Below the pieces are notes generated by a model. It was given only the letters and a program-made list of their open reading frames with translations, ran no database searches and was not told the DNA's origin. This document shows, in pieces, positions 35,913 through 60,666 of a stretch of DNA of 64,000 nt. The stretch lies in contig NC_081541.1 of the NCBI RefSeq assembly GCF_901000735.1, positions 4,333,021 through 4,397,020 of the forward strand, written 5' to 3'. The DNA is from Corylus avellana (lineage: Eukaryota > Streptophyta > Magnoliopsida > Fagales > Betulaceae). How positions within the stretch are numbered: the first letter of the stretch is position 1; each line of letters opens with the position of its first letter. A program made the translations under genes and the position numbers.

Positions 35913-36101
35913 ATGGAGTTTGTTGAAAATATATATAAATTTATTTGTAATTCTCTAATTCTTCATTCTGTGATTATATATAATAATTGTAAGAAAAATG
36001 TTGAAGAGGCACTTCTTAATATAATTAGATCACTCTACTCTCTAATATTTATTTTTCGTGATTTGGGTGAAAACCTAGAGAAAGACAGAGATGGTGATTG
36101 A
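35913..36101 (+). other. Upstream open frame overlapping the DC1-gene start (copy 1)
   Basis: A 62-codon frame opens at ATG 35913 and closes at 36101, 11 bases past the main ATG at 36091. In the second large copy the same ATG (near 47092) runs into a stop after a short deletion. It could dampen translation if the leader is unspliced. No protein family recognised. Confidence 0.3.
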
Positions 36102-38331
36102 GCATTTCAGTCACAAGCATATGTTATCGCCGAGGGAAAAGAAGAGAGAAGAGAAGATTGAATGCGTCGCATGCCACAAATACTGCGATGAAGGTCTGAT
36201 CTACTGTTGCAGGGCATATTTCTGTAGGTTCAAACTGCACGAATCATGTGCAAAGCTACCGCAGGAGTTGCACAACCCCCTCCTTCACCCACACCCTCTT
36301 TCCCTAGTGCGATCAAAATACGGCTGCTTTAGCTGTGATGCTTGTGGGCTCTTTAGATCGGGCTTCAGCTTCCGCTGCTACCTGTGCAAAGTCAACCTTG
36401 ATGTTAAGTGCGCTTTTATATGGCCAGCGGTAGAAGGGGACGAGGCAGTTGTTGTTGGTACACATTTTAGCCACCGCCAGCATCCATTGGTAGCCTTGAA
36501 GAACATAACTGCCTGTCGCTTTACCTGCGAGGTATGTAAAACAAACCGCTCGGACCCGATGATCTATGGTTGCCTCCCATGTGGCTTCTTTCTCCATCCA
36601 TCGTGTTTTAAGTTGCCGAAAGAGGTTTTCCATCCCTTTCATCCATACCACCCTCTCACCCTAAAACGCATCGAGAAGCAGGATTATGATGTTTATGGAC
36701 GCCGCCGTCTCACCATACAACGCATCAAGGATGATGATAATGAAGATGATGAAGATGATGATGATGTTGATGTTACTGGTCTTAAATGCAATGCCTGTCG
36801 CGAGGATATGGCCATGGCCACCAACCACTTCGCCTACTTTTATTGGCACCGTAACAATTACACTTTCTTTTGCTTGGGCACAGAATGCGCTAGTGTGATA
36901 ATGCCTGCCATAACATACGAAGGCCACGATCACCTTCTACAATTCAGGGACAACATAGTTGATGAACTGATCAAGTGCAGCGCTTGCAATTCCATTATTA
37001 GTGAATCATACGCTTTCAGATGTCTAGAACTGGCATGTGATTTCAATCTCCATCTTACGTGTGGTCCATTACCATCTACCATTCAACACCAATCCCACAT
37101 TGATCCCCTTATCCTTACAATTTGTCCCATTGAAGATGAAAGGATTGCGAGCCTGACGAATTCTATTGTGATGCTTGTGAGGAACAAAGAGTAGACCGAT
37201 TATTGCCCATTTATTATTGCAAGAAGTGTCATTTTGTTGCCGAAATTTCTTGCGTCATCTCAGAGGTACTTAAGCAAACTCATATATCAAATCTTAGATT
37301 TCAAAGTTAAAATAATAACTTAAAGGGAAATAATTAAATACAGGTTTGTGCCATTTAAGTTCATCTCATCTAAGTTTGGTTTAATAATTTGGCACCACTA
37401 TGATTTCCTCTTACAAACATTTTACAATCGGTTCATGTTCGCGCGACTCAAATCTTTGGTTGGTTCTCAGGTATTATCATCGCTAAAGGGAGAACGTGGA
37501 GATGTGGAGCTGAGGAATCCTTTTGGACAGTTTGGAAATCTGATTCGCGAGAAACAAGAACAACTCGTGATCAACCCGGCTTTAACCTTGTCTGATATTT
37601 TTAATTCTTTGGGTGAAGCGGAGAAAAAAGAATTGAGTAATGCTTTTCTTAGTGCTAGGGCTCTTCCACGGTCTACGAGTCCGAAATGGGAAACTTCAAT
37701 AGTTTGGGAATACAGAGAAGTTCCTTTCAAGGGTGACGAGGCATACACACAATTCATGAAATTTGCTGATATTGGCTTAGAGATTCCAATAGAATTTGGA
37801 GATACAAAGGAAGATGTTCAGATTTCGAATTTCAAGTTTTGCTATACGCTGCTTCCAAAAGAAGAGGTTGTCGATATTGAGGATTACAAGATTACTCGAA
37901 AGTTGGCCCCTATCTTGAAGGGCTTGCTTTCCAAATACGGGGATGTTAGTGCCCAGTCCAACTTAAGTCCAAAGGTGAAACTTTATTTCTTCCTCATGTT
38001 ATGTGACTGCATTTATAGCATGATAAATACCAAAGTTGTGGATATCACCAAAAAAGATCTTCTCAACTGGTGGGCAAGCTTGGAAACATCCAAATATGCG
38101 GGATTTAGAATTCAATTTGCCTTTGATCATTTGAAGAGAGTTGCACTTGCTCATTTTGGTCTTTATGGTAAAAAGCAAGGAAACAAGGCTCTTGCTCAAC
38201 TTGATAGAGATATCGAGGCACTAAAAGAGAAACGCAAGTTCATAACATCTATAAAATCCAGCTTAATCGAGGAATGCTCGAGAGAGGTTTCGATACTGCA
38301 GGGAGGGAAAGCAGGTCTTGGATTATTATAA
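36091..38331 (+). pseudogene. DC1-domain + C-terminal helical domain gene, frameshifted (copy A)
   Basis: Exon 1 is 36091-37265 and exon 2 is 37471-38331, the same layout as the intact gene at 47268. Exon 1 carries DC1 modules (HFSHKHML ... CVACHKYCDEG, CDACGLFRSGF, CEVCKTNRSDP, CNACREDM, CSACNSIISES). Near 37140 one A is missing (GATGAAAGGATTG against GATGAAAAGGATTG in the sister), so the frame turns into IASLTNSIVML and stops at 37194. This cuts off the last DC1 module and all of exon 2. A putative zinc ligand in module 4 is also changed (YWHRNNYTFFC against SEYCNNTTFFC). Exon 2 is still open and little changed, so the lesion looks young, or is a sequencing error. A truncated protein of 367 residues could still be made. 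Confidence 0.85.
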
Positions 38332-39344
38332 GTGTTTTTGGTTAATTATATCCTCTCTGTTCATTCTCAGAACAGGCCAGTGATAAATCATGATTTTATT
38401 GTCCTCTTATTCATATATAGTTTTCATGAGTTTGTTTTATCACGTCTATGTGTCGTTTTAGGCACAACTCTTCTCAAAGTTCATTTATCTTAACTTTTAG
38501 AATTTACACGTAGCAGTTTACAATATACGATATTCTCATACCAACTTTCATGAGGTTCTTAAGTTATTATATATTCATCTTGATTGCTTGTGTCTACTCA
38601 ATACATCTACATAATTATTATGGACATATGTTGACATGCCCAACCGCTAGTTAGGAATTGTTTTAGGGCTCGAGACACCTATTCTTAAAATGGGCAGGAT
38701 CCTCTCCATTTCGTTAGCCATCTTATTTTATCTTTTTAAATTTAATGTCATTTAAAAATTTTAAATGATATGTGACTTTATGTACACTATTAGATGCCAC
38801 AAAATAAAATATTGACTATAAAATTGTTTATCTCCATTTTGGATCCTAGCCCCTCTTTTTCACAAAGGCATATTTTACAATAGATGCATTTTTAAATGAG
38901 TTTCACAAATTTATGTGAAAATTGCATGCTCTAAAGACATCAGTGTCATAGATTACATTAAATTTTTTTTCTTTTAACTTAATTTAGAAAAAAACTTTGT
39001 TCGTCACTTATTTACTTGAAACATATGATTCATATTAGCTTAAAAATATATGAATAATGCTACACCTACAACTCTTTTATAATTCTTACAACTACGTCCC
39101 ATTGGTTGATATAACAAAGGCAAATTTGTTCGGCTTAGGGCTGGCTACCTCCTAAAAAGACCTGAACTTTGGAGTATTCTGCTGTACTTTGCAATTACTG
39201 GGGAGTTATTCACTATCATGCATGCGGATATGTTTGGGATAAAAATTGAATTTGTTAAAAGGTAGTGACAGTTAAAATAATGTAGAACACAAGAATCAAT
39301 GTTTTAGAAAGTTAGAGACCTCCAAAATTTATAATCATTATCAG
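38332..39344. other. 3' flank of DC1 copy A with a possible MITE at 38693-38856
   Basis: Spacer shared with 49512-50440. At 38693 GGGCAGGATCCTCTCCATTT faces TCCATTTTGGATCCTAGCCCC near 38856, inverted-repeat-like ends around an AT-rich core (TTTAAAAATTTTAAATGATATG). No gene. Confidence 0.45.
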
Positions 39345-39793
39345 GGCCGGCTCGATGTATTTGGGGGCTTTAGGCGAAATTTTGAAATTAGTCCTTATTT
39401 TTTTTAATATTTAAATATTAATTAAATAATATTTATTTTAATAATATTATTATATTTTTATAATATAATTATTATTTTCATTCTCATTGTTGTTTCATGA
39501 CTTTTAAGTTTAATTTTTAACTAGTTGGCCAAAAAATTGATGTGGCATATTTGTTTTTTTGGTTAATTGGTCTTATTTTACAATGGGCTTATTATATTGG
39601 GGCCTTATTGTAGAGGCCTTAAATTTTTATGGGAAAAAATGTTAGGCCTTATTTAAAAAAAAAAAAAAAAAAATAGGCCTCAAGTTAAAATAAAATTAAA
39701 AAATTTTTTAGGCCTTATTAAAAATTTTTTTTGGGCCTTATTAAAACAAAATTTGGACCTTACTAACTGGGGCCCTAGGCGGATTTTTTAGGG
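39345..39793. mobile_element. hAT-like insertion (CAGGGCCGGC end), right end lost
   Basis: CAGGGCCGGCTCGATG begins the insertion at about 39345, and GGGGCCCTAGGCGG lies near its right limit. The sequence is absent from the sister block near 50440. The flank before it (39240-39344) is repeated after it (about 39794-39905), a local duplication rather than a plain 8-base target repeat. It shares end type with the larger element at 55388. Confidence 0.6.
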
Positions 39794-40750
39794 AGAAAAA
39801 TTGAATTTATTGTTTGTTAAAAAGTAGTGACGGTTAAAATAATGTAGAACACGAGAATCAATGTTTTAGAAAGTTAGAGACCTCCAAAATTTAAAATCAT
39901 TATAAATGTCTAACACTGGTTGTAAATTATGAACTCTTTACTCTTTCATCATTTATATAGTTTCAAAATTACTTGTACCTATTTTATGTCTTTTGATGTT
40001 TGTTATATACATCTTTCAAAATTAATTAATGATCTGCTGAAATGAGGGATAAGATAATAATGGTATGGCAATGACATCAGAAAAAGACATAAATGCAATA
40101 CAAGAAACAGGGGAGTCCAATTTTTGAACTGATTCTATAAATTTCTGCATATTTTGTTTTAAAAGCTTGTTCCCAGAACTGGTCTTGAATTGCTGAACAG
40201 TGTAGCATTGCAAAGAAATTAGATAATATTGAACAAACAATTTTTGTACGTAGGGACAATTTTTCTGTAAGCTGAGTTGGATTTTTCGTTCCCAATCTAT
40301 TGAACTAACATTTGCATTTAGAGCATGCAATTATCGCATATATTTTTGAGTTGAAGGATTTTTTTTTTCAACGAAATTTGAAAGAAATTTATATCATTTT
40401 TAGTGTGGATCTGCCTAGTTTTATAGTAGGGGGACACGATTATAGACCCTTTTCCTGTTTTGTTTTCCCCACTTGTCCGTTTCTTCCTTTCTCATCTATA
40501 ATTGATCGAGAGAGAGATCCAGAGAAGGTGCATGCATGTGGACTAAAAACAGCAGAAAAAGGTGTGGGAACCAACCCTGCACAGCTTCTGCTCTATCTTT
40601 ATCTTTTTGATAAATCATTTTTCAGTACTGACATAATAATTATAATTGTAAGAAAAATGTTGATCGAAGAGGCACCTCATATTAGATCACTCTCTATTTC
40701 TTTTTCGCAGTGATTTTGTGTTAAAACCTAGAGAAAGACGAGAGATCGAG

Positions 40751-42895
40751 ATGAAGATTTTGTAAACACTTCATGTAGTTACTCGAACATGATGAGCCAG
40801 ATGAGGATTGGAGTTACAAGTTTTCTTATGATTTGGATCTTTTTTCTATTAAGAATGTTGGGGATTACATGACTACTCGGAGGTTAACCCCTATCTTAAA
40901 CCACTTGCTTTCTAACCACGGGGATATTGATGCCGAATCCACATCAAGTCCTAAGTTGAGATCATTTTACTTTTGCATGTTATGTGACTGTATTTATCGT
41001 ATGAGAAACACCAAAGTTGTGGGTATCACAATTGATATACTTTTCGGTTGGTGGAAATGCTTGAAAATCTTGCAATTTGCTGGATTTAAAATTGAGTTTG
41101 TCTTTGATCGTTTGAAGAGAGTTACACATGCTCATTTTGGTCTTTATGTTGAAAGGCAAGTAGACAATGCTGTCGATCAAATTGAGAAATGTACAAGAAT
41201 ACTCGAGCACATTTCAATCTCCATCATACGTGTGGTCCATTACCATATACCATTAAACACAAATCTCACATGCATCCCCTCATTCTTGCCAATTCTCCTG
41301 CTCAACATGAAGATGAGACGCACAATGAATTCTATTGCGATGCTTGCGAGGAAGAAAGGCCAGATCCACTATTACGCATTTATCGGTGCATACAATGTCA
41401 CTTTGCTGTATTATATTAAATGCGTCATCTCTGAGGTAATTATAAGCTGATGCACGTGGAATTTTATATTAATTTCAAGATTTTTTATTTTATTTTATTA
41501 TTTCAAGATTTAAAAGTTAAAAAAAAAAAAATAAATAATAATAACCTTCTAGGATCTTTACTCTTTGAAAATATGACTGGATTCCTTTTAATCTATGCAA
41601 TATATATGCCCAATAATATGGAATACACATGCTTTGTAATTCACACACACACATATATATATATATATATAGAGAGAGGAGTCATATAATTCTTTCATGA
41701 GTAATGCTAGAAGTAGAAGTTCTTTTCATGTTTATCTTGTGTTCTTTCAAAACTGACATAATTTTTAAAATTATCATTTGATCAAAATTTAATAATAATT
41801 TATTATAGATTTAATAGTAATTTTAAAGTCACGTCAATTTGAGAGCAACACAAGAGAAACACAGTAGGACTTCTAGCATTACTCAGGAAAAAATTGTATG
41901 ATTCATATATATCATGAGTACGTAGCACTTTAATTAATTTTATTTTTTAATGCAAATACTAGTAATTGTGTAATTTGACGTCATGTGGGCTTGGTTCAAT
42001 ACTTTTATATATCAAGATTTTCATTTTACAATTAGTTCATGCTCTTAATTCAAAGTCTATGGTTGATTTGTAGGTAATATCATCGCTAAATGGAGAATAT
42101 GGAGATGTAGAGTTGACAAATCCTCTAAGACAGTTTGGTAAGGTTATTACCAAAGACGCGGCAAAAGAGATGGTGCAAACGGAAGATAAAAACCAACTCG
42201 AGCCAACTTTAACCTGTAAAGATGTTTTAAAAACTTTGAGAGAAGCCGATAGGGAAGTGGTTCTTTTAGAGGATAGAATAAAGGAAATAACTACTGCTAG
42301 ATGGACAGAGCCAAAGGACCTTGAGGAAATGATAATGTTTTGTGACAAGGCTTGTACAGATTTCTTGGAGTTTGTCGGACATGATGGGCATCAGACTTAT
42401 AAGGAAAATTGGGATCTTTTTCCTATTAAGAAAGAAGAGGTTGTGAATGTTGGGGACTACATGACTACTCGGAGGTTAGCCCCTATCTTAAACCACCTGC
42501 TTTCTAACCATGGGGATATTGGTGCCGAATTCACATTAAGTCCTAACTTGAGATCACTCTACTTTTGCATGTTATGCGAGTGCATAGATTGTATGAGAAA
42601 CGCCAAGGTTGTGGATATCACAATTGGTATACTTCTCAATTGGTGGAGATGCTTGAAAATCGTGCAATTTGCAGGATTTAAAATTGAGTTTGCCTTTGAT
42701 AGATTGAAGAGAGTAACACATGCTCATTTGGGTCTTTATGTTGAAAAGCAAGTTGACAATGCTGTTGATCAAATTGAGAAATGTACAAGAAAACTCGAGT
42801 ACATAAAATCTGCAAAATCCAACTTCATCGAGGAATGCTTGAGAGAGGCTTCGGCACTGAAGAAAGAAAAAGCAGTTCCATGTAGGCTACTATAG
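40751..42895 (+). pseudogene. Chimeric DC1-family pseudogene (copy A2)
   Basis: A DC1-type promoter and leader (40440-40750) lead to ATG 40751, which meets a stop four codons later. Sequence then jumps to the middle of a second exon (DLDLFSIKNVGDYMTTRRL to about 41205). At ACTCGAGCAC|ATTTCAATCTCC it jumps back into the end of a first exon (FNLHHTCGPLPYTIKHKSH ... FYCDACEEERPDPLL) in a different frame. A normal donor (GAG|GTAATTATAAG near 41435) and a complete second exon follow (42074-42895, VISSLNGEYGDVEL to PCRLL). This order (exon-2 part, exon-1 part, exon 2) is what a deletion between two adjacent genes would leave. It cannot encode the full protein. Confidence 0.8.
41699..41884. mobile_element. 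GAGTAATGCTAGAAGT foldback MITE in the A2 intron
   Basis: Left end GAGTAATGCTAGAAGTAGAAG, right end GGACTTCTAGCATTACTC. Long inverted arms include TCAAAACTGACATAA and CACGTCAATTTGAGAG. Sister copies sit at the same intron position at 52350-52535 and 59519-59699, so the insertion predates the gene duplications. Confidence 0.75.
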
Positions 42896-43421
42896 ATGTC
42901 AACAGTGTTAAAACATTTATTTTTATCAGAGCCTTCGTTCATCTGCTCAGGTGAAGAGCAATTTGTTTCCCTACTTTTTCTTTTCTGGATTTTACTCGGC
43001 AGTTTTAGAATTCCCCTCGAGTGAATTATCATGCCAGAGATAATTCCTCAAACTCTGGATTTGGTGATTTTAGTCTTGTTTCTTTGTTGCATTGTTGCTG
43101 AATTTCTGTTAGCTTTCTTCTTAAATAGTGCAGATTTTGCTGCTGCATTTCCTGAGAATTATGAGCCTCCACTGGGTGGTTTCTACTTTGTAGTCCATGA
43201 TAATTCCCCAACAGTTCAAGTAAAAATAATATAATTAAAACTTGTTAATTTGCTATCAGCATTTTGAGTATCTGTTTGCCTGCAAAGTTAAATTTCATTT
43301 CCTTCTACAATGAAGATGAGATCAATTTTTTTTTTTTTATTACAATGTTCATGACCGAGTTAATGATTTTGCTGTTGTTGAGACAAAAAAAACATGACGA
43401 GAGTTTGGATAAACAATGAAA
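42896..43421. other. 3' flank of A2, conserved in both large copies
   Basis: It carries a 67-codon plus-strand frame (43031-43234, hydrophobic N-half) and a 60-codon minus-strand frame (43211-43029), both also open in copy 2 (53682-53885 and 53862-53680). Neither matches a family I know. Given the syntaxin relic at 54356, this may be 3' flank of that old gene. Confidence 0.35.
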
Positions 43422-43521
43422 NNNNNNNNNNNNNNNNNNNNNNNNNNNNNNNNNNNNNNNNNNNNNNNNNNNNNNNNNNNNNNNNNNNNNNNNNNNNNNN
43501 NNNNNNNNNNNNNNNNNNNNN
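43422..43521. other. Assembly gap (100 N)
   Basis: Exactly 100 N, a conventional scaffold gap of unknown true size. It sits at the end of large block copy 1. Confidence 0.98.
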
Positions 43522-43789
43522 TTTTTTATTATATATATATTTTACTTTTTTTAATTAAAAGAAAAATTATGCTTAAAACGACGTCGTTTTGGGCTGGATA
43601 TGTGTTGTGATTTTAGGACACAAAACGACATAGTTTTGAGGAAGGGTAAAATGGGTATAAAACATCCAAAACGACGTAGTTTAATGTTAAAGGGGTCCAA
43701 AGTGAGAGAAAACCAAAGTTCAGGGGGTCTAAGTGAGAGCTTTGGAAATTCAGGGGGGGGTTTTCTGAAGTTTCCCCTTTTATTTATTT
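43522..43789. other. Unique spacer between gap and block copy 2
   Basis: Contains the palindrome AAAACGACGTCGTTTT (43577) and two further ACGACRTAGTTT variants (43627, 43671), followed by a G-rich run. No gene. It has no match in block copy 1. Confidence 0.5.
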
Positions 43790-46120
43790 ATTTTTTATTT
43801 TTGCTTTGTGCTTATTTGTGTAGGCCCTTCTTTCTTTTAGGCCCCCCTATTATATTATTATTTGAGGCCCAATTCTTGACAGAATATCTCACCTCCCTGA
43901 CTTAGATATTGGATTTGGAGGTGTTGAATATATATGAGAGCTACAGCTCGATCTGATTTCAGGCATTCCTTGCTGTGAATTTGGTTGCTTAAATTTCTGG
44001 ATCATCAGAGGGTGTCAATTTAAAAAATAATAATAGTTAGAAAAGCTAATAAGTATGAGAAATAATAATTTATGAGATAAATGCAAATGATATGTAAGGG
44101 GAGAGTAAACATATAGGGAGAAGTACATATACCCATCTCAAACTACCATCTAATTGACAATGTCCTCTCAAACTTTTAATTGTGATAATGTCCTCTCCAA
44201 ATTACCAAAACATTGTCAATGTTCCTCTAATGACGAAACTACCATTAGTAAAATAAAAACAAAAATACTAAAACTTCTATAAAAAACCTAAGACTACCAG
44301 CAAAAAAAAAAAAAAATCAAGGGTTGGCCAAATTTAAATTTAACATGTTCAATACACTTTAAAAAAATGGGTAACTTCACTGAAAACCCTTGAGCTTCCA
44401 CCCGATTTGACAAACTCCCCATAAATTTCAAAATCTCTCAATTTAGTGTCCTGAACTTTCAATTGCAATCAATTTGGACCCTTCCGTCAATTTTAACCGT
44501 TAGAAATACCAAAAAAGACCAAAATATCCTTGATTTTCATTTTTTAAAAAAAATAAAAAAAGGTTTTGGAATTAAGGGTAAAGTTGGAATTTTATACAAA
44601 AGTCAGGGGTATAAACGTTATGTAACGTTTAAAATCTGATGGAAGGTCCACATTGAGAGCAATTGAAAGTTCAGATAACCAAATTGAGAGATTTTGAAGT
44701 TTAGGGGGGTTCAGGGGTCTTCACTGAAGTTACTCCTAAAAAAAAAGTTCATGTTGAATAATGTACTGATGTATAACATTTAATATATCTTTTCGTTAAG
44801 AGAAGTATGATAGATTTTTTCACATGAAAAGTAAGATGAGGAGGAATGATAGAGTTTTGAGGAGGAATGCATCAAGTGGCTATTTTGTAATGCTGCCATC
44901 TCTCTATTTTTAGTTAAACTGTTCGTTTTAGTTAAATTGTGCGTTTCATTTAACTTGACTGCACTGTGAGACATGGGAGACAAATTTTATTTTTAATTTT
45001 TTTGCTTAAAATAACGTGAAGACCTGCACATGCATGGAATTAATTTTTTTTTAAAAAAAGTTTGCTTAAAAAGACAGAATATATAAAGGTTGAGGAATAT
45101 TTGCCCACGTGATGCGTGAACCATTATTTTTAAATGCTCTCCAACAAACCATAATTAAAAAAAAAGAAAAAAAGATGTGCCCCGTGATGTGTGAACCATT
45201 AGCTAGTAAAAAAAGAAAAGAAAGACTCTGGAAGATGTGCTCATGCTGCTTTAATTCGGTTTATGCCAAAAACAATTGATTTTTAAATTTTTGCTTACAA
45301 ATACGTGAAAGGTGTAAGAATTTGGGAGAATATTTAACATATAAACATTAAACAAAAATATTAATATCTGGGCATTGTTGTTTAAGTACTTTAATTAAGT
45401 AATCTAGAAATCCAAACTTGAACATTTGTTGAATTTACAATTTTAAACTCTTAATTTGTAATTATAGAACCAATCTTATAACCCTCATAATATGTTGGAA
45501 AGTGGTAGATAAGAGTTTTTAGCTTATATGTTTCTCACGTTCATAGTTGTGACGGATGGAAAATCACATGCTTATTTTTATATAGGCCAAGATCCCTATT
45601 CATTTATCTTGCGTTGCTTCCTTCCATCAAGGGAGACAACATTTGGTGAAAAATAAAACACATTTTCACCTTTAGTAGTTAAATGTACATTAATTACCCA
45701 AGAGTTTTAGTTTAATAAAAACTCCATTAATATTATATGCTATATACATATATATATGTGACATGTGTGACACACCTTATAAGATTTATTCTAACACTCT
45801 CTCACTTGGCACACATGACACATCTTTAAAATCATTTGGGTAACTAATATTGAATATGGCCATAATTAAAAACTACTCAAGCTTTAGTTTTATTTAGAGA
45901 GATACAATATACGAATCATGGCAATTATGTTATTATATTAACATTTCCTTCCACGAATTACAATGTATTAGTCTTTCTTAATAAAATCTTTATATGGTAT
46001 AATTCTTTATGAATCTTTATAGTGGATTATTGATGTTTAGTTAATGGATTATCAAGTAAAACGACCCAAAAAAAATCAAAAATAAATATGGGGTGGAAAA
46101 AAACAATTTTGGAAAAACTA

Positions 46121-46541
46121 TGGCACGTCACTACATTGGTGACGTGTCAAGATATACACGTCACCAAAATGGGTGACGTGCCAATCGTCCAACGTCATCT
46201 AAGTCGATGATGTGCCAAGCTTGACACATTACCCATTTTGGTGACGTGCCAAATGTGATACGTCATCGACTTTGATGACGTATCAATCTTGACACGTCAT
46301 CAAAGTCGATGATGTGTCACATTTGAAATGTCACCCATTTGGTGACCTGCCAAAATGACAAACGTCACCCTTGTAGATGATGACGTGTGTAATTTCAAAC
46401 GTCACTAATTGGTGACATGTGCCAAATTGACAGGTCACTAAATCCAATTCTGGACCGGAGAGTTAATGTCCCGTGACCCATGTCACAAATAACACGTACG
46501 TCACCAAACCGAAGTCACTAAATACTGATTTTTTTAAAGTG
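46121..46541. mobile_element. TGACGT/ACGTCA-rich element, CACTA-like (copy 2)
   Basis: Counterpart of 34942-35362, almost base for base, with the same right-end AAATCAGTATTTAGTGAC on the minus strand. It lies about 730 bases upstream of the intact DC1 gene. Confidence 0.45.
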
Positions 46542-46735
46542 ATTTCAGATTTTATGTTTATGTATAAGCAACCTCCTGAAGAAGAGCAGGATGTCAATAT
46601 TGGAGATTAGATGGTTACTCGAAAGCTGGTACCTATCCTATTAATCCTAAAGGGGTAGCTTTCCAAACATGGGGATGTTGGTGCCGAGTCCAAGTTAAGT
46701 CCAAGAGTGAAACTTTACTTCTTCCACTTGTCTAA
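46542..46735 (+). pseudogene. Relic of the DC1-gene second exon (copy 2)
   Basis: Same relic as at 35363-35560, with the same stop after VNIGD and the same LSKHGDVGAESKLSPRVKL tail. Its presence in both blocks shows it is older than the block duplication. Confidence 0.7.
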
Positions 46736-47267
46736 AGTTTGGTCACCGTCCATCTCTTTTAAAACAGTTTGCTGTTATATATTATAATAAAAGCAGGTAA
46801 GCCAGATCGATTCTTGAAAGTATCCCTGGCCGGCTACCTATGATTGGTTGGTTGAGTAGATTTATGGATCATCGTAGGGTGTCTATTAAAAAGAAAAGAA
46901 TAGTTGAAAGGAGGATAAGTATTGGAAATAATAATTTAGGAGATAAATGCAAATGAGATGTAACAAACAGGGGAGTAAACATATATTTTCCCCCCTAATC
47001 ATTTTCCGCAGGGGCCAATGGTCTCGTCCTTGTGGAGTCATCATCACTTGTCCGTTTCTCCCTCTCTCATCTATAATCGAGAGAGCTTGAAATGGAGTTT
47101 GTTGAAAATATATATAAATTATTTTAATTCTCTAATTCTTCACTCTGTGATTATATATAATAATTGTAAGAAAAATGTTGAAGAGGCACTTCTTAATATA
47201 ATTAGATCACTCTACTCTCTATTATTTATTTTTCGTGATTTGGGTGAAAACCTAAAGAAAGACAGAG

Positions 47268-49511
47268 ATGGAGATTGAGCATTTCAGTCACGAGCATATG
47301 TTATCGCTGAGTGAAAAGAAGAGAGAAGAGGAGGTTGAATGCGTCGCATGCCAAGAAGACTGCGATGAAGGTCTGATCTACAGTTGCAGGACATATTTCT
47401 GTAGGTTCAACCTGCACGAATCATGTGCAAAGCTACCGCAGGAGTTGCACAACCCCCTCCTTCACCCACACCCTCTTTCCCTAGTGCGACCAAAACACGG
47501 CCGGTTTAGCTGTGATGCTTGTGGGTACTTTCGCTCGGGCTTCAGCTTCCGCTGCGACAAGTGCGACGTCGACCTTGATGTTAAGTGCGCTTTTATATGG
47601 CCAGCGGTAGAAGGGGAGGAGGCAGTTGTTGTTGGTACACATTTTAGCCACCGCCAGCATCCATTGGTAGCCTTGAAGAACATAACTGCCGGTCGCTTTA
47701 CCTGCGAGTTATGTAAAACAAACCGCTCGGACCCGATGATCTATGGTTGCCTCCCATGTGGCTTCTTTCTCCATCCATCGTGTTTTAAGTTGCCGAAAGA
47801 GGTTTTCCATCCATTTCATCCATACCACCCTCTCACCCTAAAACGCATCAAGAAGCATGATCGTGATTATAGATACCACCATGTCACCGTACAACGCATC
47901 AAGGATGATGATGATGAAGATGATGAAGATGATGATGATGTTGATGTTACTAGTGTTAAATGCAATGCCTGTCGCGAGGATATGGCCATGGCCAACCACT
48001 TCGCCTACTTTTCTGAGTACTGTAACAATACGACTTTCTTTTGCTTGGGCGCAGAATGCGCTAGTGTGATAATGCCTGCCATAACATACGAAGGCCACGA
48101 TCACCTTCTACAATTCAGGGACAATATAGTTGATGAACTGATCAAGTGCAGCGCTTGCAATTCCACTATTAGTGAATCATACGCTTTCAGATGTCTAGAT
48201 CTGGCATGTGATTTCAATCTCCATCTTACGTGTGGTCCATTACCATCTACCATTCAACACCAATCCCACATTGATCCCCTTATCCTTACAATTTGTCCCA
48301 TTGAAGATGAAAAGGATTGCGAGCCTGACGAATTCTATTGTGATGCTTGTGAGGAACAAAGAGTAGACCGATTATTGCCCATTTATTATTGCAAGGAGTG
48401 TCATTTTGTCGCCGAAATTTCTTGCGTCATCTCAGAGGTGCTTAAGCAAACTCATATATCAAATCTTAGATTTCAAAGTTAAAATAATAACTTAAAGGGA
48501 AATAATTAAATACAGGTTTGTGCCATTTAAGTTCATCTCATCCAAGTTTGGTTTAATAATTTGGTACCACTATGATTTCCTCTTACAAACATTTTACAAT
48601 CGGTTCATGTTCGCGCGTGACTCAAATCTTTGGTTGGTTCTCAGGTATTATCATCGCTAAAGGGAGAACGTGGAGATGTGGAGCTGAGGAATCCTTTTGG
48701 ACAGTTTGGAAATCTGATTCGCGAGAAACAAGAACAACTCGTGATCAACCCGGCTTTAACCTTGTCTGATATTTTTAATTCTTTGAGTGAAGCGGAGAAA
48801 AAGGAATTGAGTAATGCTTTTCTTAGTGCTAGGTCTCTTCCACAGGCTACGAGTTGGAAATGGGAAACAATTACTTCAATAGATTGGGAATACAGAGAAG
48901 TTCCTTTCAAGGGTGACGAGGCATACACACAATTCATGAAATTTGCTGATATTGGCTTAGAGATTCCAATAGAATTTCGAGATACAAAGGAAGATGTTCA
49001 GATTTCGAATTTCAAGTTTTGCTATACGCTGCTTCCAAAAGAAGAGGTTGTCGATATTGAGGATTACAAGATTACTCGAAAGTTGGCCCCTATCTTGAAG
49101 GGCTTGCTTTCCAAATACGGGGATGTTAGTGCTCAGTCCAACTTAAGTCCAAAGGTGAAACTTTATTTCTTCCTCATGTTATGTGACTGCATTTATAGCA
49201 TGATACATACCAAAGTTGTGGATATCACCAAAAAAGATCTTCTCAACTGGTGGGCAAGCTTGGAAACCTCAAAGTTAGCGGGATTTAGAATTCAATTTGC
49301 CTTTGATCATTTGAAGAGAGTTGCACTTGCTCATTTTGGTCTTTATGGTAAAAATCAAGGAAGCAAGGCTCTTGCTCAACTTGATAGAGATATCGAGGCA
49401 CTAAAAGAGAAACGCAAGTTCATAACATCTATAAAATCCAGCTTAATCGAGGAATGCTTGAGAGAGGTTTCGATATTGCAGGGAGGGAAAGCAGGTCTTG
49501 GATTACTATAA
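47268..49511 (+). CDS. DC1-domain protein with C-terminal helical domain (copy B, intact)
   Basis: Exon 1 is 47268-48437 (390 codons) and exon 2 is 48645-49511, joined in phase 0 (GAG|GTGCTT ... TCTCAG|GTATTA), for 678 residues. About six DC1 modules fill residues 5-390, with CxxC and HxxxC signatures: HFSHEHML ... CVACQEDCDEG ... LHESC; CDACGYFRSGFSFRCDKC; HFSHRQHPL ... CELCKTNRSDP ... LHPSC; CNACREDM; CSACNSTISES ... CDFNLHLTC; FYCDACEEQRVDRLL ... CHFVAEISC. An acidic linker DDDDEDDEDDDDVDV (about 212-226) comes from a GAT-rich microsatellite. Exon 2 encodes a helical domain (ITRKLAPILKGLLSKYGDV, LYFFLMLCDCIYSM, DLLNWWASLE) ending in a basic coiled coil; it recalls helices of PEARLI-4-like or MATH-coiled-coil proteins, low confidence. 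DC1 proteins bind zinc and some act in defence; function here unknown. Confidence 0.85.
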
Positions 49512-50754: not shown

Positions 50755-52287
50755 GTCCAATTTTTGAACTCATTCTATAAATTTCTGCATATTTTGTTTT
50801 AAAAGCTTGTTCCTAGAACTGGTCTTGAATTGCTGAACAGTGTAGCATTGCAAAGAAATTAGATAATATTGAACAAACAATTTTAGTACGTAGGGACAAT
50901 TTTTCTCTAAGTTGAGTTGGATTCTTCCTTCCCAATCTATTGAACTAACATTTGCATTTAGAACATGCAATTATCACATATATTTTTGAGTTGAAGGATT
51001 TTTTTCTTTTTTTTTTTCCAACTAAATTTGAAAGAAATTTTTATCATTTTTAGTGTGGATCTGCCTAGTTTTATAGTAGGGGGACACGATTATCGAACCT
51101 TTTCCTGTTTTGTTTTCCCCACTCGTCCGTTTCTTCCTTTCTCATCTATAATTGAGAGAGAGATCCAGAGAAGGTGCACGCATGTGGACTAAAAACAGCA
51201 GAAAAAGGTGTGGGAACCAACCCTGCACAGCTTCTGCTCTATCTTTATCTTTTTGATAAATCATTTTTCAGTACTGACATAATAATTATAATTGTAAGAA
51301 AAATGTTGAAGAGGCACCTCATATTAGATCACTCTCTATTTCTTTTTCGCAGTGATTTTGTGTTAAAACCTAGAGAAAGACGAGAGATCGAGATGACGAT
51401 TTTGTAAACACTTCATGTAGTTACTCGAACATGATGAGCCAGATGAGGAGGAGTTACAAGTTTTCTTAATGATTTGGATCTTTTTTCTATTAAGAATGTT
51501 GGGGATTACATGACTACTCGGAGGTTAACCCCTATCTTAAACTACTTGCTTTCTAACCACGGGGATATTGATGCCGAATCCACATCAAGTCCTAAGTTGA
51601 GATCATTTTACTTTTGCATGTTATGTGAGTGTATTTATCGTATGAGAAACAGTGAAACACCAAAGTTGTGGGTATCACAATTGATATACTTTTCGGTTGG
51701 TGGAAATGCTTGAAAATCTTGCAATTTGCTGGATTTAAAATTGAGTTTGTCTTTGATCGTTTGAAGAGAGTTACACATGCTCATTTTGGTCTTTATGTTG
51801 AAAGGCAAGTAGACAATGCTGTCGATCAAATTGAGAAATGTACAAGAATACTCGAGCACATTTCAATCTCCATCATACGTGTGGTCCATTACCATATACC
51901 ATTAAACACAAATCCCACATACATCCCCTCATTCTTACCAATTCTCCTGCTCAACATGAAGATGAGACACACAATGAATTCTATTGCGATGCTTGCGAGG
52001 AAGAAAGGCCGGATCCACTATTACGCATTTATCGGTGCATACAATGTCACTTTGCTGTATGATATTAAATGCGTCATCTCTAAGGTAATTATAAGCTGAT
52101 GCACGTGGAATTTTATATTAATTTCAAGATTTTTTTTTTTATTTTTTTAATATTTCAAGATTTATAAGTTTTTTTTTTAAAAAAATAACCTTCTAGGATC
52201 TTTACTCTTTGAAAATATGACTGGAGTCCTTTTAATCTATGCAATATATATGCCCAATAATATATATGGAATACACATGCTTTGTAA

Positions 52288-52290
<3 letters not shown>

Positions 52291-52331
<41 letters not shown>
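52291..52331. repeat. (AT)n microsatellite in the B2 intron
   Basis: About 20 AT units. The A2 counterpart (41641-41680) is a shorter mixed (CA)n(TA)n(GA)n run, so the length is unstable. Confidence 0.9.
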
Positions 52332-52333
<2 letters not shown>

Positions 52334-52349
52334 TCATATAATTCTTTCA

Positions 52350-52535
52350 TGAGTAATGCTAGAACTAGAAGTTCTTTTCATGTTTATCTTGTGTTCCTTT
52401 AAAACTGACATAGTTTTTAAAATTATCATTTGATCAAAATTTAATAGTAATTTATTATAAATTCAATAGTAATTTTAAAGCCACGTCAATTTGAGAGTGA
52501 CATAAGAGAAACACGAAAGGACTTCTAGCATTACT
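52350..52535. mobile_element. GAGTAATGCTAGAA foldback MITE in the B2 intron
   Basis: Starts GAGTAATGCTAGAACTAGAAG and ends GGACTTCTAGCATTACTC. Orthologous in position to the copy at 41699. Confidence 0.75.
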
Positions 52536-54355
52536 CAGGAAAAAATTGTATGATTCATATATATCATGAGTAGCACTTTAATTTTATTTTTTAATTACTA
52601 GTAATTGTGTAATTTGACGTCATGTGGGCTTGGTTCAATACTTTTATATATCAAGATTTTCATTTTACAATTAGTTCATGCTCTTAACTAAGTCTATGGT
52701 TGATTTGTGGGTAATATCATCGCTAATTAAATGGAGAATATGGAGATGTAGAGTTGATAAATCCTCTAGGACAGTTTGGTAAGGTGATCATTACCAAAGA
52801 CGCAGCAAAAGAGATGGTGCAAACGAAAGATAAAAAAAAAACTCGAGCCAACTTTAACCTGGGAAGATGTTTTAAAAACATTGAGAGAAGACGAGAATGA
52901 AAATGAAGTGGTTCTTTTAGAGGATAGAATAAAGGAAATAACTACTGCTAGATGGACAGAGCCAAATGACCTTGAGGAAATTATAATGTTTTGGGACAAG
53001 GCTTGTACAGATTTCATGGAGTTTGGCGGACATGATGGGCATCAAACTTATAAGGAAAATTGGGATCTTTTTCCTATTAAGAAAGAAGAGGTTGTCAATG
53101 TTGGGGATTACATGACTACTCGGAGGTTAGCCCCTATCTTAAACCACCTGCTTTCTAACCATGCGGATATTGGTGCCGAATCCACATTAAGTCCTAAGTT
53201 GAGATCGCTCTACTTTTGCATGTTATGTGAGTGCATAGATCGTATGAGAAACACCAAGGTTGTGGACATCACAATTGGTATACTTCTCAATTGGTGGAGA
53301 TGCTTGAAAATCGTGCAATTTGCAGGATTTAAAATTGAGTTTGCCTTTGATAGATTGAAGAGAGTAACACATGCTCATTTGGGTCTTTATGTTGAAAAGC
53401 AAGTTGACAATGCTGTTGATCAAATTGAGAAATGTACAAGAAAACTCGAGGACATAAAATCTGCAAAATCCAACTTCATTGAGGATTGCTTGAGAGAGGC
53501 TTCGGCACTGAAGAAAGAAAAAGCAGTTCCATGTGGGCTACTATAGATGTCAACAGTGTTAAAACATTTATTTTTATCAGAGCCTTCGTTCATCTGCTCA
53601 GGTGAAGAGCAATTTGTTTCCCTACTTTTTCTTTTCTGGATTTTACTCGGCAGTTTTAGAATTCCCCTCGAGTGAATTATCATGCCAGATATAATTCCTC
53701 GAACTCTGGATTTGGTGATTTTAGTCTTGTTTCTTTGTTGCATTGTTGCTGAATTTCTGTTAGCTTTCTTCTTAAATAGTGCAGATTTTGCTGCTGCATT
53801 TCCTGAGAATTATGAGCCTCCACTGGGTCGTTTCTACTTTGTAGTCCATGATAATTCCCCAATAGTTCAAGTAAAAATAATATAATTAAAACTTGTTAAT
53901 TTGCTATCAGCATTTTGAGTATCTGTTTGCCTGCAAAGTTAAATTTCATTTCCTTTTACAATGAAGATGAGATCAATTTTTTTTTTTTATTACCATGTTC
54001 AAGTCCGAGTTAATGATTTTGCTGTTGTTGAGACAAAAAAACATGACGAGAGTTTGGATAAACAATGAAAATGTAAAAACAATCATTTACACACACAAGA
54101 GAAGGAGATGGAAGAAATTCCAACTTTTATTAGTAATAACAGGGTAATCATTTACTTTACATGATTTGCAATTAATAGCCTTGCAAAGAGGATACAAGCT
54201 CCAAATAATTGGTCTTCTGTATAGTATTGAGAAGGTGTCAGCTACCTTACATGCTGTGTAATTAGACTTTGATAAGAGAGCAGCTAAGGAATACCACTAG
54301 GACTAGGAGGCCATGCCTGAAAACTGAATTCGAATTGAGACAACTGATTTGTTGC

Positions 54356-54845: not shown

Positions 54846-56625
54846 CACCCTACAAAAAAAATGATGGATGCCTGTGCTGGATCGAGACTGGTAGAAAAAT
54901 TGACTGTATGTTATATTGTGAAAGCAAAATTCATTGAAATGCAAGAAGAGACTATTTTGCCTGACTTCACTGAAATGCAAGGAATCATACCAGAAAACAG
55001 TGCAGAATTCCCTGACATGAACCTTGTGGGGTCTGAGACTCATGAGAACCGAAGTAGTGTGGATCCGATGTCTGCTGTTTTGGATGAGACGAGGCCCATA
55101 GAAAGTGATGCTATCTCTCCAGAAAGTAATGTGGAAGCCTGGCTTGATGACATCCCTGTACTTCCAGGCATTAATGATATTTTTTGGGAACAATTCCTTA
55201 CAGCAAGCAGCCCGCTGACGGGGGACACAGATGAAATTCATTCGAGTTCATTAGATGGAGTGACTGAGCACGGACAAAGGGAAGGGGGGACTAGCTAGTA
55301 GCATAGGCCATGCCCCCTCAATTCCTAAAAACAAAAAACTTTTAAGGTATAAAAAAATAAAAAAATTATAAGGTATTAGTTCCTACTCAGGCCGGCCCAA
55401 CTGCTAGGCGAGTTAGGCCGGCGCCTAGAGCTACGATTTTATAAGCCTCCTCCAAAAAAAAAAAAAAAGTACAAAAATTTAAGACCCTCAACATGCTTAA
55501 AAAAAATATTATTACTTGTTTATAATATCAAGGCCCTCAACATGCTTTCTTGATGCCTTCAACGTGCTTTAAAAAAATAATTTTATTTTTTTTATAATAT
55601 GAAGGTCCTAGCATGCTTTCTGCAGAATGGCCACAAGGCCCTCAACATGTTTAATTAAAAAATATATATATGCTATTTGTTTATAATAACGAGGCCATCA
55701 ACATGCACTCTTAAGGCCATCAACATGCTTTAAAAATAATTTTATTTTTTTTATTATAATATTGAGGCTCTCAGCATGCTTTCGTTGCACAATCACAACT
55801 CACAATATGCTTCCTTGGCTGTACAGTAAAAAATAGAACAATAAAACCACAACTCAGTTTTATTGTTCTATATATATATATACCGTGTTTGTTTAATTTT
55901 TTAATATTTTTAATCAAATATTTCTACCAAAGGTAGAAAAGCTGATTAAATTTCAAAGAGGAGTTCTAAATAAATTTGTAATTAGCAATAAACAAAATAT
56001 AGAGGATAATTTAGGTGAAAAACTTGTAAATGAACAAGAAATTCATCAAAAAGAATTATAAGATAATGAAAATACTATTGATATATCTAAGTCTGTTGGT
56101 ACAAATATTTGAATAGTATCTAACTCTATCCCTTTCCTCATTTGAATAGGGAAAAAAAAAAAACTCTATTGTTACAAATATTTGTGACCCAGGCCAATAG
56201 AAAAATATTGATGCAAAATTAGGGCATTTATTAGTAGAAAAGGGGTCCAATAAGATAGTAATATAGATTTTCCTAAAGATGAGAACTCTAAACATTTTTT
56301 TAGTACATATTATATACGGAAATCATCAAATGGGGAGAAGCATAATAGAAAATGACTAGTTTATTCAAAAGATTTAGATAGAGTATTTTGGGAAAAATAA
56401 TGATTTTTAAATAAAAATATAATAACAATAATATTAAAATAAATATTAAAATATTTTAAAAAATAAAGCTCTATTTAAAAGTTTCGCCTAAGGCCCTAAA
56501 AACCATTGGGCCGGCCCTGTTCCTACTAGTAAAATATTTTGCCCCCGACTCCTTATAGTAATTTTTGGCTCCATTCTTGGATCATGAACCGATAGGAAAT
56601 TAAGAAGAATGATTGGGACAAGATT
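54846..56625 (+). pseudogene. HSFA1 partial duplicate, interrupted by a hAT element
   Basis: Starts with HSFA1 intron sequence (ATGATGGATGCCTGTGCTGG, as at 29056). It then skips about 1 kb and enters the end of exon 2 ([19 protein letters not shown] ... [20 protein letters not shown] ... [20 protein letters not shown] ... SSSLDGVTE, up to about 55270). It breaks off, and after a 1.3-kb insertion the next HSFA1 piece resumes at 56574-56625 (GGATCATGAACCGATAGGAAA ... GGGACAAGATTCAT), where it ends. The DNA-binding and oligomerisation domains are absent. The AHA motif is kept. There is no promoter of its own. It is not a working factor. Confidence 0.9.
55388..56519 (+). mobile_element. hAT transposon remnant (1132 bases) with 8-base target-site duplication
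   Basis: Ends are inverted: CAGGCCGGCCCAACTGCTAGGCG on the left and GCCTAAGG ... GGGCCGGCCCTG on the right. TTCCTACT occurs directly outside both ends (55380-55387 and 56520-56527). The interior translates in broken frames to pieces of a hAT transposase N-terminal (TTF/DUF4371-like) region: KFQRGVLNKFVISNKQNIED, ICDPGQ, IDAKLGHLLVEKG, LVYSKDLDRVFW. It is dead, and splits the HSFA1 pseudogene. Confidence 0.88.
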
Positions 56626-56634
56626 CATATAGAG

Positions 56635-57479: not shown

Positions 57480-57765
57480 CAGTTTTGTTTCCCTAGTTTT
57501 CAACAAACCGTGTCGAGTAAAGTCAAGTTGAGAGAAGCTTTTTGACTCCCAAAGTCATCATATAAAACGGATAAAAAAAAAAAAAGTCATCAAATAAAAA
57601 ACCATTTTCACACATGCATCACCTGCACGCATGTTTACATTGTGAGCACAGATGTAAACATGCAGGTGTTATAGTCTTGAAACCTTAGAATTGTGGCTTT
57701 GTTCTTATTTATGGGGTACCATGACCAATGACCATCCATGTGAAATCATCGTAACTTGCCCGTTT
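57480..57765. promoter_or_regulatory. Copied HSFA1 flanks leading into the DC1 copy C promoter
   Basis: 57487-57625 matches the HSFA1 5' flank 24760-24890 (TGTCGAGTAAAGTCAAGTTG, TTTTTGACTCCCAAAGTCATC). It is followed by a hairpin TGTTTACAttgtgagcacagaTGTAAACA with CACCTGC/GCAGGTG, then HSFA1 3'-flank words (GTTATAGTCTTGAAACCTT), then the DC1-type leader (GTGAAATCATCGTAACTTGCC, CGTTTCTCCCTCTC). DC1 copy C thus has an upstream region assembled from HSFA1 flanks. Confidence 0.6.
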
Positions 57766-58007
57766 CTCCCTCTCTCCAGAAAAGAAAAAAGAGTAAATTA
57801 AGTAGCCAAAGGGTGACCGTGGTGGGCCGCGCACAGCTTTTGCGCTATCTTTTTTCTTTTTGATTTATCTAATTCTTCAGTCTGACATTATATATAATTG
57901 TAAGAAAAATGTTGAAGATCACTCTCTATTTCTAAGATCGTGAGAAAAAAAATAAAAATCTCTGATTGATTTGGGGTCAAAACATACCTGGAGAGAAAGG
58001 CAGAGAG

Positions 58008-60666
58008 ATGGAGATTATTAAGCATTTCAGTCACCATCATGTGTTATCGCTGAGTGAAAGGAAGGGAGAAGATAAGGTTTTATGCAAAGCATGCTGTGAA
58101 CACTGCGATGAAGGTGTGATGATCTACAGTTGCAGGGAATCTGATTGCGACTTCAACCTGCACGAATCATGTGCAAAGCTACCGCAGGAGTTGCACAACC
58201 CACTTCTTCACCCTCACCCACACCCTCTTTCCCTAGTATACCTAAAGCACCCACACCCTCTTTCCCTAGTACACCTAAAGAACGGCATGTTTCGGTGTAA
58301 AGCTTGTCGCAAAATTTGCTTGGGCTTCACCTTCAGCTGCGAAAAGGACTGCAACGTCGTCTTTGATGTTAAGTGCGCTTTTATAAGGCCAGCGATAGAA
58401 GAAACGGGCGAGCCAGTTCCTGTACATTTTACCCACCATGAGCATCCATTGGTACCCTTGGAGAACATGCCTGGCGATCGCATTAGCTGCCGCGTGTGTG
58501 GAACATACTGCTCCGACCCGACCTATGGTTGCTTCCCATGTCGCTACTTTCTCCATCGATCGTGTTTTAAGTTGCCGCAAGAGATTTTCCATCCCTTTCA
58601 TCCATACCACCCTCTCACCCTAAAATCCCGAAATCCCCTGGAGGATGTTGTTGTTCGATGCAATGCCTGTCGCAATGATATCCGGTACCTGCACCAAGTC
58701 GCCTATGTTTGTGAGTATACGAATTGCAGATTTCGGCTGCACAGAGAATGCACTAGGGTCATAATGCCTGCCATAACATACGAAGGCCACGATCACCTTC
58801 TTCAATTCAACCACAATATTATTAGAAAGAATTATAGAGGTGATGAAGAACTACTGATCAAGTACTGCAGCGCTTGCAAATCCACTTGTGAATCATATGG
58901 TTTCAGTTGTCTGTATTGTGATTTCAATCTCCATCATACGTGTGGTCCATTACCATCTACCATTAAACACAAATCCCACATACATCCCCTCATTCTTACC
59001 AATTCTCCTGCTCAACATGAAGATGAGACACACGATGAATTCTATTGCGATGCTTGTGAGGAAGAAAGGCCGGATCCACTATTACCCATTTATCAGTGCA
59101 TACAATGTCACTTTGCTGCTGATATTAAATGCCTCATCTTTGAGGTAAGCTGATGCACGTGGAATCTTTTATTTCAACTTTTCTTTTCTTTTTAATATTT
59201 CAAGTTTTAAAAGTAAAAAAAATTAAAAAATTAAAAATAATAATAATAATAAACAAAAAATAAAATTAAAATAACTTTCTAGGATATTTACTCTCTGAAA
59301 ATATGACTGGAGTCCTTTTAATCTATGCAATATATATGCCCAATAATATGGAATACACATGTTTTGTATTTATAGGCTATATTGGGAACACTCAATTAAA
59401 ATTTTGCTTTCAAAAAACTAATCTTAACCATTTTCAACACTACGAAGTGTAGGTGTAGATTGTGAAAATTAAAGTGCTACTGATCATATATATAGAGATG
59501 AGTCATATAATTCTTTCATAAGTAATTTTAGAAGTTCTTCTCATGTTCGTGTGTCCCTCCAAAATTGATATAACTTTTAAAATCATCATTGGATCAAAAT
59601 TTAATAGTAATTTATTATAAATCTAATAGTAATTTTAAAGACACGTCAGTTTTGAAGTGACACAAGAGAGACATTGAAGGACTTTTAGCATTACTCATGA
59701 AAAAATTGTATGATTCATATATATGAGTAGCACTTTAATTTTCTTTTTTAATACAAATACTAGCACTTTAATTCATATATCAAGTACAATTAGTTCATGC
59801 TTTTAACTCATAGTCTATGGTTTGATTTGTAGGTAATATCATTGCTAAATGGAGAATATGGAGATGTAGAGTTGATAAATCCTCTAGGACAGTTTGGTAA
59901 GGTTATTACCAAAGAAGCAGCAAAAGAGATGGCGCAAACGAAAGATAAAAAACAACTCGAGCTAACTTTAACCTGGGAAGATGTTTTAAAAACATTGAGA
60001 GAAGACGAGAATGAAAATGAAGTGGTTCTTTTAGAGGATAGAATAAAGGAAATAACTACTGCTAGATGGATAGAGCCATATGACCATCAGGAAATTATAA
60101 TGTTTTGTGACAAGGCTTGTACAGATTTCATGGAGTTTGTCGAACATGATGAGGATTGGAGTTACAAGTTTCCTTATGATTGGGATCTTTTTTCTATTAA
60201 GAAAGAAGAGGTTGTGAATGTTGGGGATTACAAGACTACTCGGAGGTTAGCCCCTATCTTAAACCACCTGCTTTCTAATTATGGGGATATTGGTGCCGAA
60301 TCCACATTAAGTCCTAAGCTGAGATCGCTCTACCTTTGCATGTTATGTGAGTGCATAGATCGTATGAGAAACACCAAGGTTGTGGACATCACAATTGATA
60401 TACTTCTCGGTTGGTGGAGATGCTTGAAAATCTTGCAATTTGCAGGATTTAAAATTGAGTTTGCCTTTGATAGATTGAAGAGAGTAACACATGCTCATTT
60501 TGGTCTTTATGTTGAAAGCCAAGTAGACAATGCTGTTGATCAAATTGAGAAATTCACAAGAAAACTCGAGTACATAAAATCTGCAAAATCCAACTTAATC
60601 GAGGAATGCTTGAGAGAGGCTTTGATACTGAAAAAAGAAAAAGCAGTTCCATCAAGACTACTATAG
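58008..60666 (+). CDS. DC1-domain protein with C-terminal helical domain (copy C, intact)
   Basis: Exon 1 is 58008-59144 (379 codons) and exon 2 is 59833-60666, phase 0 junction (GAG|GTAAGC ... TTGTAG|GTAATA), giving 656 residues. I used the ATG at 58008 (MEIIKHFSHHHVLSLSE), which aligns with copy B; an ATG 14 codons upstream is also in frame. DC1 modules: CKACCEHCDEG ... LHESC; CKACRKICLGFTFSC; CRVCGTYCSDP; CNACRNDI ... CEYTNCRFRLHREC; YCSACKSTCES ... CDFNLHHTC; FYCDACEEERPDPLL. The acidic GAT-coded linker of copies A and B is missing. An 11-residue stretch is duplicated in frame (HPHPLSLVYLK HPHPLSLVHLK). Exon 2 ends TRKLEYIKSAKSNLIEECL ... VPSRLL, closer to A2/B2 than to A/B. An AATAAA at 60801-60806 could be the poly-A signal. 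Confidence 0.87.
59519..59699. mobile_element. Foldback MITE in the copy C intron
   Basis: Left end AAGTAATTTTAGAAGTTCTTC, right end AAGGACTTTTAGCATTACTC. More diverged than the copies at 41699 and 52350 but at the same intron position. Confidence 0.65.

What the first reader, a model, noticed from the sequence alone, without database searches (positions are those of the whole stretch)
36091..60666. Cluster of genes with an unusual DC1 + C-terminal helical-domain architecture
Exon 1 gives about six zinc-binding DC1 modules. Exon 2 gives about 280 residues of a helical, coiled-coil-ending domain that I cannot place firmly (it recalls PEARLI-4-like or MATH-coiled-coil proteins). The phase-0 intron sits exactly at the domain border, as in an exon-shuffling fusion. 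The same two-exon form is seen in two intact and several broken copies, so the fusion is old and maintained. Plant DC1 proteins I know usually end after the DC1 repeats.
Basis: partly seen in the sequence, partly recalled or inferred. Interest (0 to 1): 0.75.

Follow-up and report, generated by a model that had tools for sequence, protein, structure and literature searches.

The report
Zinc-finger DC1 array fused to PEARLI-4
In a birch-family plant, a small gene cluster encodes proteins that join a row of zinc-binding DC1 modules to a PEARLI-4 helical domain; relatives in several tree families have the same join, the two halves seem to evolve differently, and the job of the protein is unproven.

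Summary
Two intact two-exon genes (47268-49511, 58008-60666) encode 5-6 DC1 modules in exon 1 and a helical domain in exon 2, with a phase-0 GT-AG intron at the border; other copies are broken. I found 15 database proteins with the same fusion, from six tree genera and two unnamed sources, so it is old and already deposited, but under generic names; I found no open-licence paper naming it. New here: the N-terminal DC1 array evolves apart from the last DC1 module plus PEARLI-4 (conflicting trees, AU p 0.001 and 1.5e-8; dS 0.23 against 0.63-0.96), and one recent pair shows dN/dS 3.2 in exon 1 but not exon 2. Best reading: a variable DC1 recognition array on an oligomerising PEARLI-4 platform, perhaps in defence or stress; the function is inferred. 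Copy number is uncertain because one contig may be an unmerged allele.

The parts
47268..48437 (+). Gene A exon 1: start codon and 5 scored C1_2/DC1 modules (390 codons)
48438..48644 (+). Gene A intron, 207 bp, phase 0, donor GTGCTT (weak by eye), acceptor TTCTCAG
48645..49511 (+). Gene A exon 2: PEARLI-4-like domain (288 aa) plus stop; 23.3 bits to PF05278, below its cut-off of 29.9
58008..59144 (+). Gene B exon 1: start codon and 6 scored C1_2/DC1 modules (379 codons)
59145..59832 (+). Gene B intron, 688 bp, phase 0, donor GTAAGC, acceptor TTTGTAG
59833..60666 (+). Gene B exon 2: PEARLI-4 domain (277 aa) plus stop; 41 bits to PF05278 (cut-off 29.9)
36091..37265 (+). Copy 1 exon 1, A-type, reading frame lost near 37140
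37471..38331 (+). Copy 1 exon 2, A-type, open; preceded by a 205-bp intron
41171..42895 (+). B-type remnant: last part of exon 1 (about 41171-41437), intron, and an open exon 2 (42074-42895); the rest of exon 1 is gone
51820..53546 (+). B-type remnant: end of exon 1, intron, exon 2 (52727-53546) with a broken frame and an altered acceptor
40755..41216 (+). Exon-2 fragment (residues 94-249 of B) joined straight to exon-1 sequence
51462..51862 (+). Exon-2 fragment joined to exon-1 sequence, counterpart of 40755-41216
35345..35560 (+). Exon-2 fragment upstream of copy 1
46524..46739 (+). Exon-2 fragment upstream of gene A

Best explanation
These genes encode an adaptor-like protein with two parts. 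The N-terminal part is an array of zinc-holding DC1 modules whose loops between the zinc ligands vary fast and act as the binding (recognition) surface. The C-terminal part, the last DC1 module plus the PEARLI-4 domain (a short beta hairpin, a helical core and a helix of about 60 residues), is the conserved platform that self-associates and docks partners. By analogy with RTM3 (MATH domain plus PEARLI-4/coiled coil, self-interacting, in a cluster marked by duplication and deletion, and needed to restrict potyvirus movement), the likeliest role is in defence or stress signalling. Shown here: the architecture, the PEARLI-4 assignment, the age of the fusion, the separate evolution of the two parts, and an excess of amino-acid changes in one pair. 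Inferred: zinc binding, self-association, binding by the DC1 loops, and the defence role.
For: Architecture. PEARLI-4: B 41 bits (cut-off 29.9); 25 of 25 rows of alignment A3 match PF05278 at E<=0.001; hhalign probability 97.2, E 4.3e-11 over 141 columns to 6 legume PEARLI-4 proteins. Age: 13 fused hits and 2 more, all 15 with PF03107. Intron: 3 of 22 short exon-2 ORFs (P0017, P0018, P0020) begin with the end of an intron, LVG(S/L)Q|V, as gene A's intron reads; B's differs. Two-part evolution: exon trees conflict; B and hazel P0001 share 93% of the last 60 columns of exon 1 and 91% of exon 2 but 56-85% of earlier blocks; A/B dS 0.23 for exon-1 codons 1-330, 0.96 for the last 60, 0.63 for exon 2. 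Fast loops: copy 1/A exon 1 dN 0.065, dS 0.020; bootstrap P(dN<=dS) 0.001; Fisher p 0.010; neutral simulation P <=0.0025 for >=53 and <=0.0095 for >=52 of 57 nonsynonymous (estimate 52.8); 42 of 43 Cys/His columns invariant in five relatives do not differ between the two copies. Long helix 209-268 in the model. RTM3: passages of PMC3377653.
Against: No transcript, expression or protein data. The dN/dS excess rests on one pair, on clustered changes (46 codons in 25 clusters) lying mostly on the branch of copy 1 (of 43 differing residues, relatives share 19 with A only, 2 with copy 1 only, 7 with both, 15 with neither), whose frame is broken; downstream DNA of the pair also differs by 5.3%. The pair may be alleles. 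Between A and B dN/dS is 0.79 (exon 1) and 0.61 (exon 2), not above 1. Exon 2 of A is below the PEARLI-4 cut-off, and of the nine fused database proteins I scanned only P0006 passed it; six scored below and P0005 and P0014 showed no match. No solved fold matched. DC1 proteins are reported in abiotic stress and papaya PEARLI-4 genes respond to drought, so defence is not the only reading.
Confidence: 0.45

Rival explanations
1. An ordinary DC1 regulator of abiotic stress or development that happens to carry a PEARLI-4 tail used for oligomerisation; its variability is only birth-and-death drift in a tandem family.
For: Published DC1 families in tomato and Ipomoea are described as growth and stress genes, the tomato ones partly clustered (abstract starts and passages); papaya PEARLI-4 genes respond to drought. 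A/B dN/dS of 0.61-0.79 is weak constraint, not clear positive selection.
Against: dN/dS 3.2 in exon 1 of the recent pair with Cys/His columns kept, and the split between array and platform seen in window, hazel and hornbeam sequences.
Confidence: 0.35
2. The fusion is a gene-model accident: a DC1 gene and a PEARLI-4 gene lie side by side and are not spliced together.
For: Gene A has a weak-looking donor and a stop after 14 intron codons; 22 of 31 hits of the exon-2 search are short exon-2-only ORFs, though intron-bearing genomic contigs would give that too.
Against: Same phase-0 junction in both genes, no start codon at the head of exon 2, and 15 fused database proteins, two of them unbroken ORFs on unnamed contigs of 2783 and 4069 bases, as cDNA would give (that these are transcripts is inference).
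Confidence: 0.05
3. The apparent tandem copies 36091 and 47268 are two alleles of one gene placed in a row by the assembler; the cluster holds fewer genes than it seems.
For: Contig 2 is homologous over nearly its length to the end of contig 1 and the homology stops at the last base of contig 1; the ends of contigs 3 and 4 are 100% identical over 1091 bases across a gap, so overlaps were left unmerged.
Against: Divergence of 4-5% is high for alleles (general knowledge), and the first 255 bases of contig 2 gave no match of 100 bases or more at the expected place in contig 1.
Confidence: 0.4

Closest known systems
PEARLI-4 family (PF05278), 'plant phospholipase-like' proteins
   Same: Exon 2 matches the profile and aligns with legume members over the core and coiled coil
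   Different: The two legume members I scanned (P0039, P0045) showed no DC1 module; here DC1 modules precede the domain
RTM3-class MATH-PEARLI-4 / MATH-coiled-coil proteins
   Same: An N-terminal interaction domain plus PEARLI-4/coiled coil in an unstable gene cluster (RTM3: PMC3377653 passages; class: passages)
   Different: No MATH domain here; a DC1 array takes its place.
Plant DC1 (divergent C1, CHP/CHR) proteins
   Same: Repeated C1_2 modules, clustered genes
   Different: The tomato and Ipomoea surveys hold the word PEARLI nowhere in their main text (passages read); here an extra exon adds a PEARLI-4 tail
Fused database proteins of Corylus, Carpinus, Quercus, Juglans, Carya and Citrus ('uncharacterized', 'hypothetical', or named for DC1, C1 or PHD domains)
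   Same: Same architecture and junction
   Different: Not described as a class in the papers searched

Membership tests
DC1 / C1_2 proteins (PF03107) | Repeated Cys/His modules scoring above the Pfam cut-off | tested here: met
   146 bits in both A and B, cut-off 26
PEARLI-4 (PF05278) | Profile score above the curated cut-off | tested here: met
   Met by B (41 against 29.9) but not by A (23.3), copy 1 (23.3) or the two remnant exon 2s (22.2, 26.3); A is 42-47% identical to B
PEARLI-4 (PF05278) | Full-length match to the 234-column profile | tested here: not met
   Best stretches cover columns 19-111 (B) or 48-116 (A) only; the rest is divergent or coiled coil
MATH-PEARLI-4 (RTM3 class) | N-terminal MATH domain | tested here: not met
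   No MATH match at E<=1 in the eight window exon pieces scanned
NLR-type resistance proteins | NB-ARC and LRR domains | tested here: not met
   No such match at E<=1 in the same eight pieces
Phospholipase (the 'phospholipase-like' label) | Lipase activity | not testable with these tools
   Only a family name in these results

The most novel reading that the evidence does not exclude
A second, non-NLR family of rapidly diversifying plant recognition proteins: interchangeable, positively selected DC1 zinc-finger arrays on a fixed 'last DC1 + PEARLI-4' oligomerisation platform, a counterpart of the MATH-PEARLI-4 antiviral proteins in long-lived trees.
Probability: 0.25. Interest if true: 0.75.

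Novelty: new variant of a known kind. Interest (0 to 1): 0.45.

Why it matters
PEARLI-4 was called a domain of unknown function in PMC3664471 (passage), and I recall no biochemical role since; yet the MATH version, RTM3, is required for resistance to potyvirus movement in Arabidopsis. A second front end on the same platform points to PEARLI-4 as a general docking or oligomerising module for plant recognition domains. The array/platform split gives a direct test of where specificity lies, and offers candidate loci to study in hazel, walnut, oak and Citrus.

Tried and rejected

A clean exon-for-exon swap at the intron was my first reading of the tree conflict. Identity along the proteins and dS by segment put the change inside exon 1, before the last DC1 module, so I dropped it. 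The groups for the AU tests were named after the trees were seen, which makes those p-values optimistic. Holding all nine Betulaceae rows together was not rejected by exon 2 (p 0.077) and weakly by exon 1 (p 0.033), so I do not claim that the A-type exon 2 is older than the walnut-birch split. Database gene models in tandem clusters may join wrong exons; the A/B comparison from window DNA does not depend on them.

Copy counts in the whole genome were not possible: the tool for the window's own genome did not complete. Taxonomic range is a lower bound, since the protein search needs shared 5-residue words; only the 7993 candidates sharing most words were scored.

Literature (open-licence PMC only): one search found 0 papers with both 'PEARLI-4' and 'DC1 domain'; one search found 0; one search listed 25 of 48 papers and I did not see the other 23. 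In one search, 20 of 1930 papers were listed and none of the 20 held 'DC1 domain'. No paper was read whole; seven were seen as passages, the rest as listings.
Full report
What is there. The window carries plant DNA; the closest named database proteins are from the birch family (Corylus avellana, Carpinus fangiana). Two genes on the + strand have the reported form: A (47268-48437 | 48645-49511) and B (58008-59144 | 59833-60666). Both introns are phase 0 with GT-AG ends. The exon-1 frames score 146 bits to C1_2 in each gene; exon 2 of B scores 41 bits to PEARLI-4 (cut-off 29.9), exon 2 of A 23.3. Copy 1 at 36091 has lost its exon-1 frame near 37140 while its exon 2 stays open; two B-type remnants and several exon-2 scraps complete the cluster.

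Identity of exon 2. Beyond the Pfam match, a profile of 9 exon-2 sequences aligns with 6 legume PEARLI-4 proteins at probability 97.2 and E 4.3e-11, and all 25 members of alignment A3 (4 of them legume PEARLI-4 proteins) match PF05278 at E<=0.001. It is a divergent member: of nine fused database proteins that I scanned, one (P0006) passed the cut-off, six matched below it, and two (P0005 at E<=0.1, P0014 at E<=0.01) showed no match. The model shows a beta hairpin (126-136), helices and one long helix (209-268), with pLDDT 68.8 overall; no solved structure is convincingly alike. PEARLI-4 is the domain that follows MATH in one class of plant MATH proteins (passages of PMC12238093, PMC3664471, PMC10218331). 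RTM3, of that class, interacts with itself, carries a known mutation in its coiled-coil part, sits in a cluster showing duplication and deletion, and is needed to restrict long-distance movement of potyviruses (passages of PMC3377653).

How widespread. A search scored on exon 2 but sized to the fused protein gave 13 hits, and a second search from the Citrus hit added 2. All 15 carry PF03107: Corylus 5, Carpinus 1, Quercus 2, Juglans 2, Carya 1, Citrus 2, unnamed 2. Nine of the 15 carry a precomputed PF05278. A third search with exon 2 alone gave 31 hits: P0011 again, one Carpinus DC1 protein (P0038), 22 short exon-2-like ORFs and 7 legume PEARLI-4 proteins. Three of the 22 (P0017, P0018, P0020, all from JGI contigs) begin with LVG(S/L)Q|V, which is how gene A's intron end reads in frame; B's intron end reads otherwise. 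This suggests a conserved intron place in A-like genes. P0008 and P0014 are unbroken fused ORFs on contigs of 2783 and 4069 bases, which suggests cDNA; the origin of those contigs is not stated, so this is inference. The architecture is therefore neither accidental nor unknown to databases, but I found no open-licence paper that describes it.

The two parts evolve differently. In trees of 18 rows, exon 2 groups B with five Betulaceae proteins and leaves A, copy 1 and hazel P0012 outside (95/98); exon 1 puts A, copy 1 and P0012 among B-type proteins (94/99). Each exon rejects the other's grouping: exon 1 p 0.001, exon 2 p 1.5e-8 (the groups were chosen after seeing the trees). Identity along the proteins shows where it changes. 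B and hazel P0001 share 93% of the last 60 columns of exon 1 and 91% of exon 2, but 56-85% of the earlier blocks; hornbeam P0002 and hazel P0003 share 88% and 88%, but 24-70% of the earlier blocks. Hornbeam P0038 matches B at 15 of 15 and 38 of 38 residues in two blocks where P0001 matches B at 22 of 42 and 32 of 38; nearer the junction the two are alike to B, 89-98% and 91-96%. In window DNA alone, A against B has dS 0.23 (0.16-0.33) for exon-1 codons 1-330, 0.96 (0.48-2.9; 59 codons) for the last 60 and 0.63 (0.46-0.87) for exon 2. So the last DC1 module goes with PEARLI-4, and the N-terminal array is exchanged or homogenised between paralogues. The mechanism, gene conversion or unequal crossing-over, is inferred.

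Selection. Between copy 1 and A, exon 1 has dN 0.065 and dS 0.020 (dN/dS 3.2; bootstrap P(dN<=dS) 0.001; Fisher p 0.010; simulated P 0.0025 or less for >=53 and 0.0095 or less for >=52 of 57 nonsynonymous under three transition weights, estimate 52.8), while exon 2 has 0.53 and the intron differs by 1.5%. Of 43 Cys/His columns invariant in five relatives, one differs between the copies. Against this: one pair only, 46 changed codons in 25 clusters, most assignable changes on the copy-1 branch, copy 1 is broken, and the downstream kilobase also differs by 5.3%.

Assembly caution. The 100-N gaps at 43422, 54746 and 62645 bound short contigs. Contig 3's end (61553-62643) and contig 4's start (62745-63835) are identical over 1091 bases, and nearly all of contig 2 repeats the end of contig 1 at 95-96%. 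Copy 1 and A may thus be alleles. The A/B comparisons are not affected.

Verdict. A real, old fusion whose splicing is likely but unproven here; a new variant of a known kind. The function offered, variable DC1 recognition on a PEARLI-4 platform, is the best-supported guess and rests on analogy plus evolution, not on assay.

Noticed in passing
61553-62643 and 62745-63835: Identical 1091-base stretches on both sides of a 100-N gap: unmerged contig overlap, an assembly artefact.
   Followed up: yes
32608-43421 and 43777-54070: 95-96% alike; the second lies on its own short contig and the homology ends at the last base of contig 1: haplotig or tandem duplication.
   Followed up: partly
25691-26212 and 29192-30550: Two + strand ORFs that look like exons of a heat shock factor gene (recognised by eye, not scanned); a stretch of the second (30125-30445) recurs at 54942-55268 with 94.8% identity.
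   Followed up: no
3210-4957, minus strand: ORFs that look like an EXORDIUM/PHI-1-type gene (recognised by eye, not scanned).
   Followed up: no
40755-41437 and 51462-52091: Exon-2 sequence runs directly into the end of exon 1, as left by a deletion or unequal exchange between neighbouring copies.
   Followed up: partly
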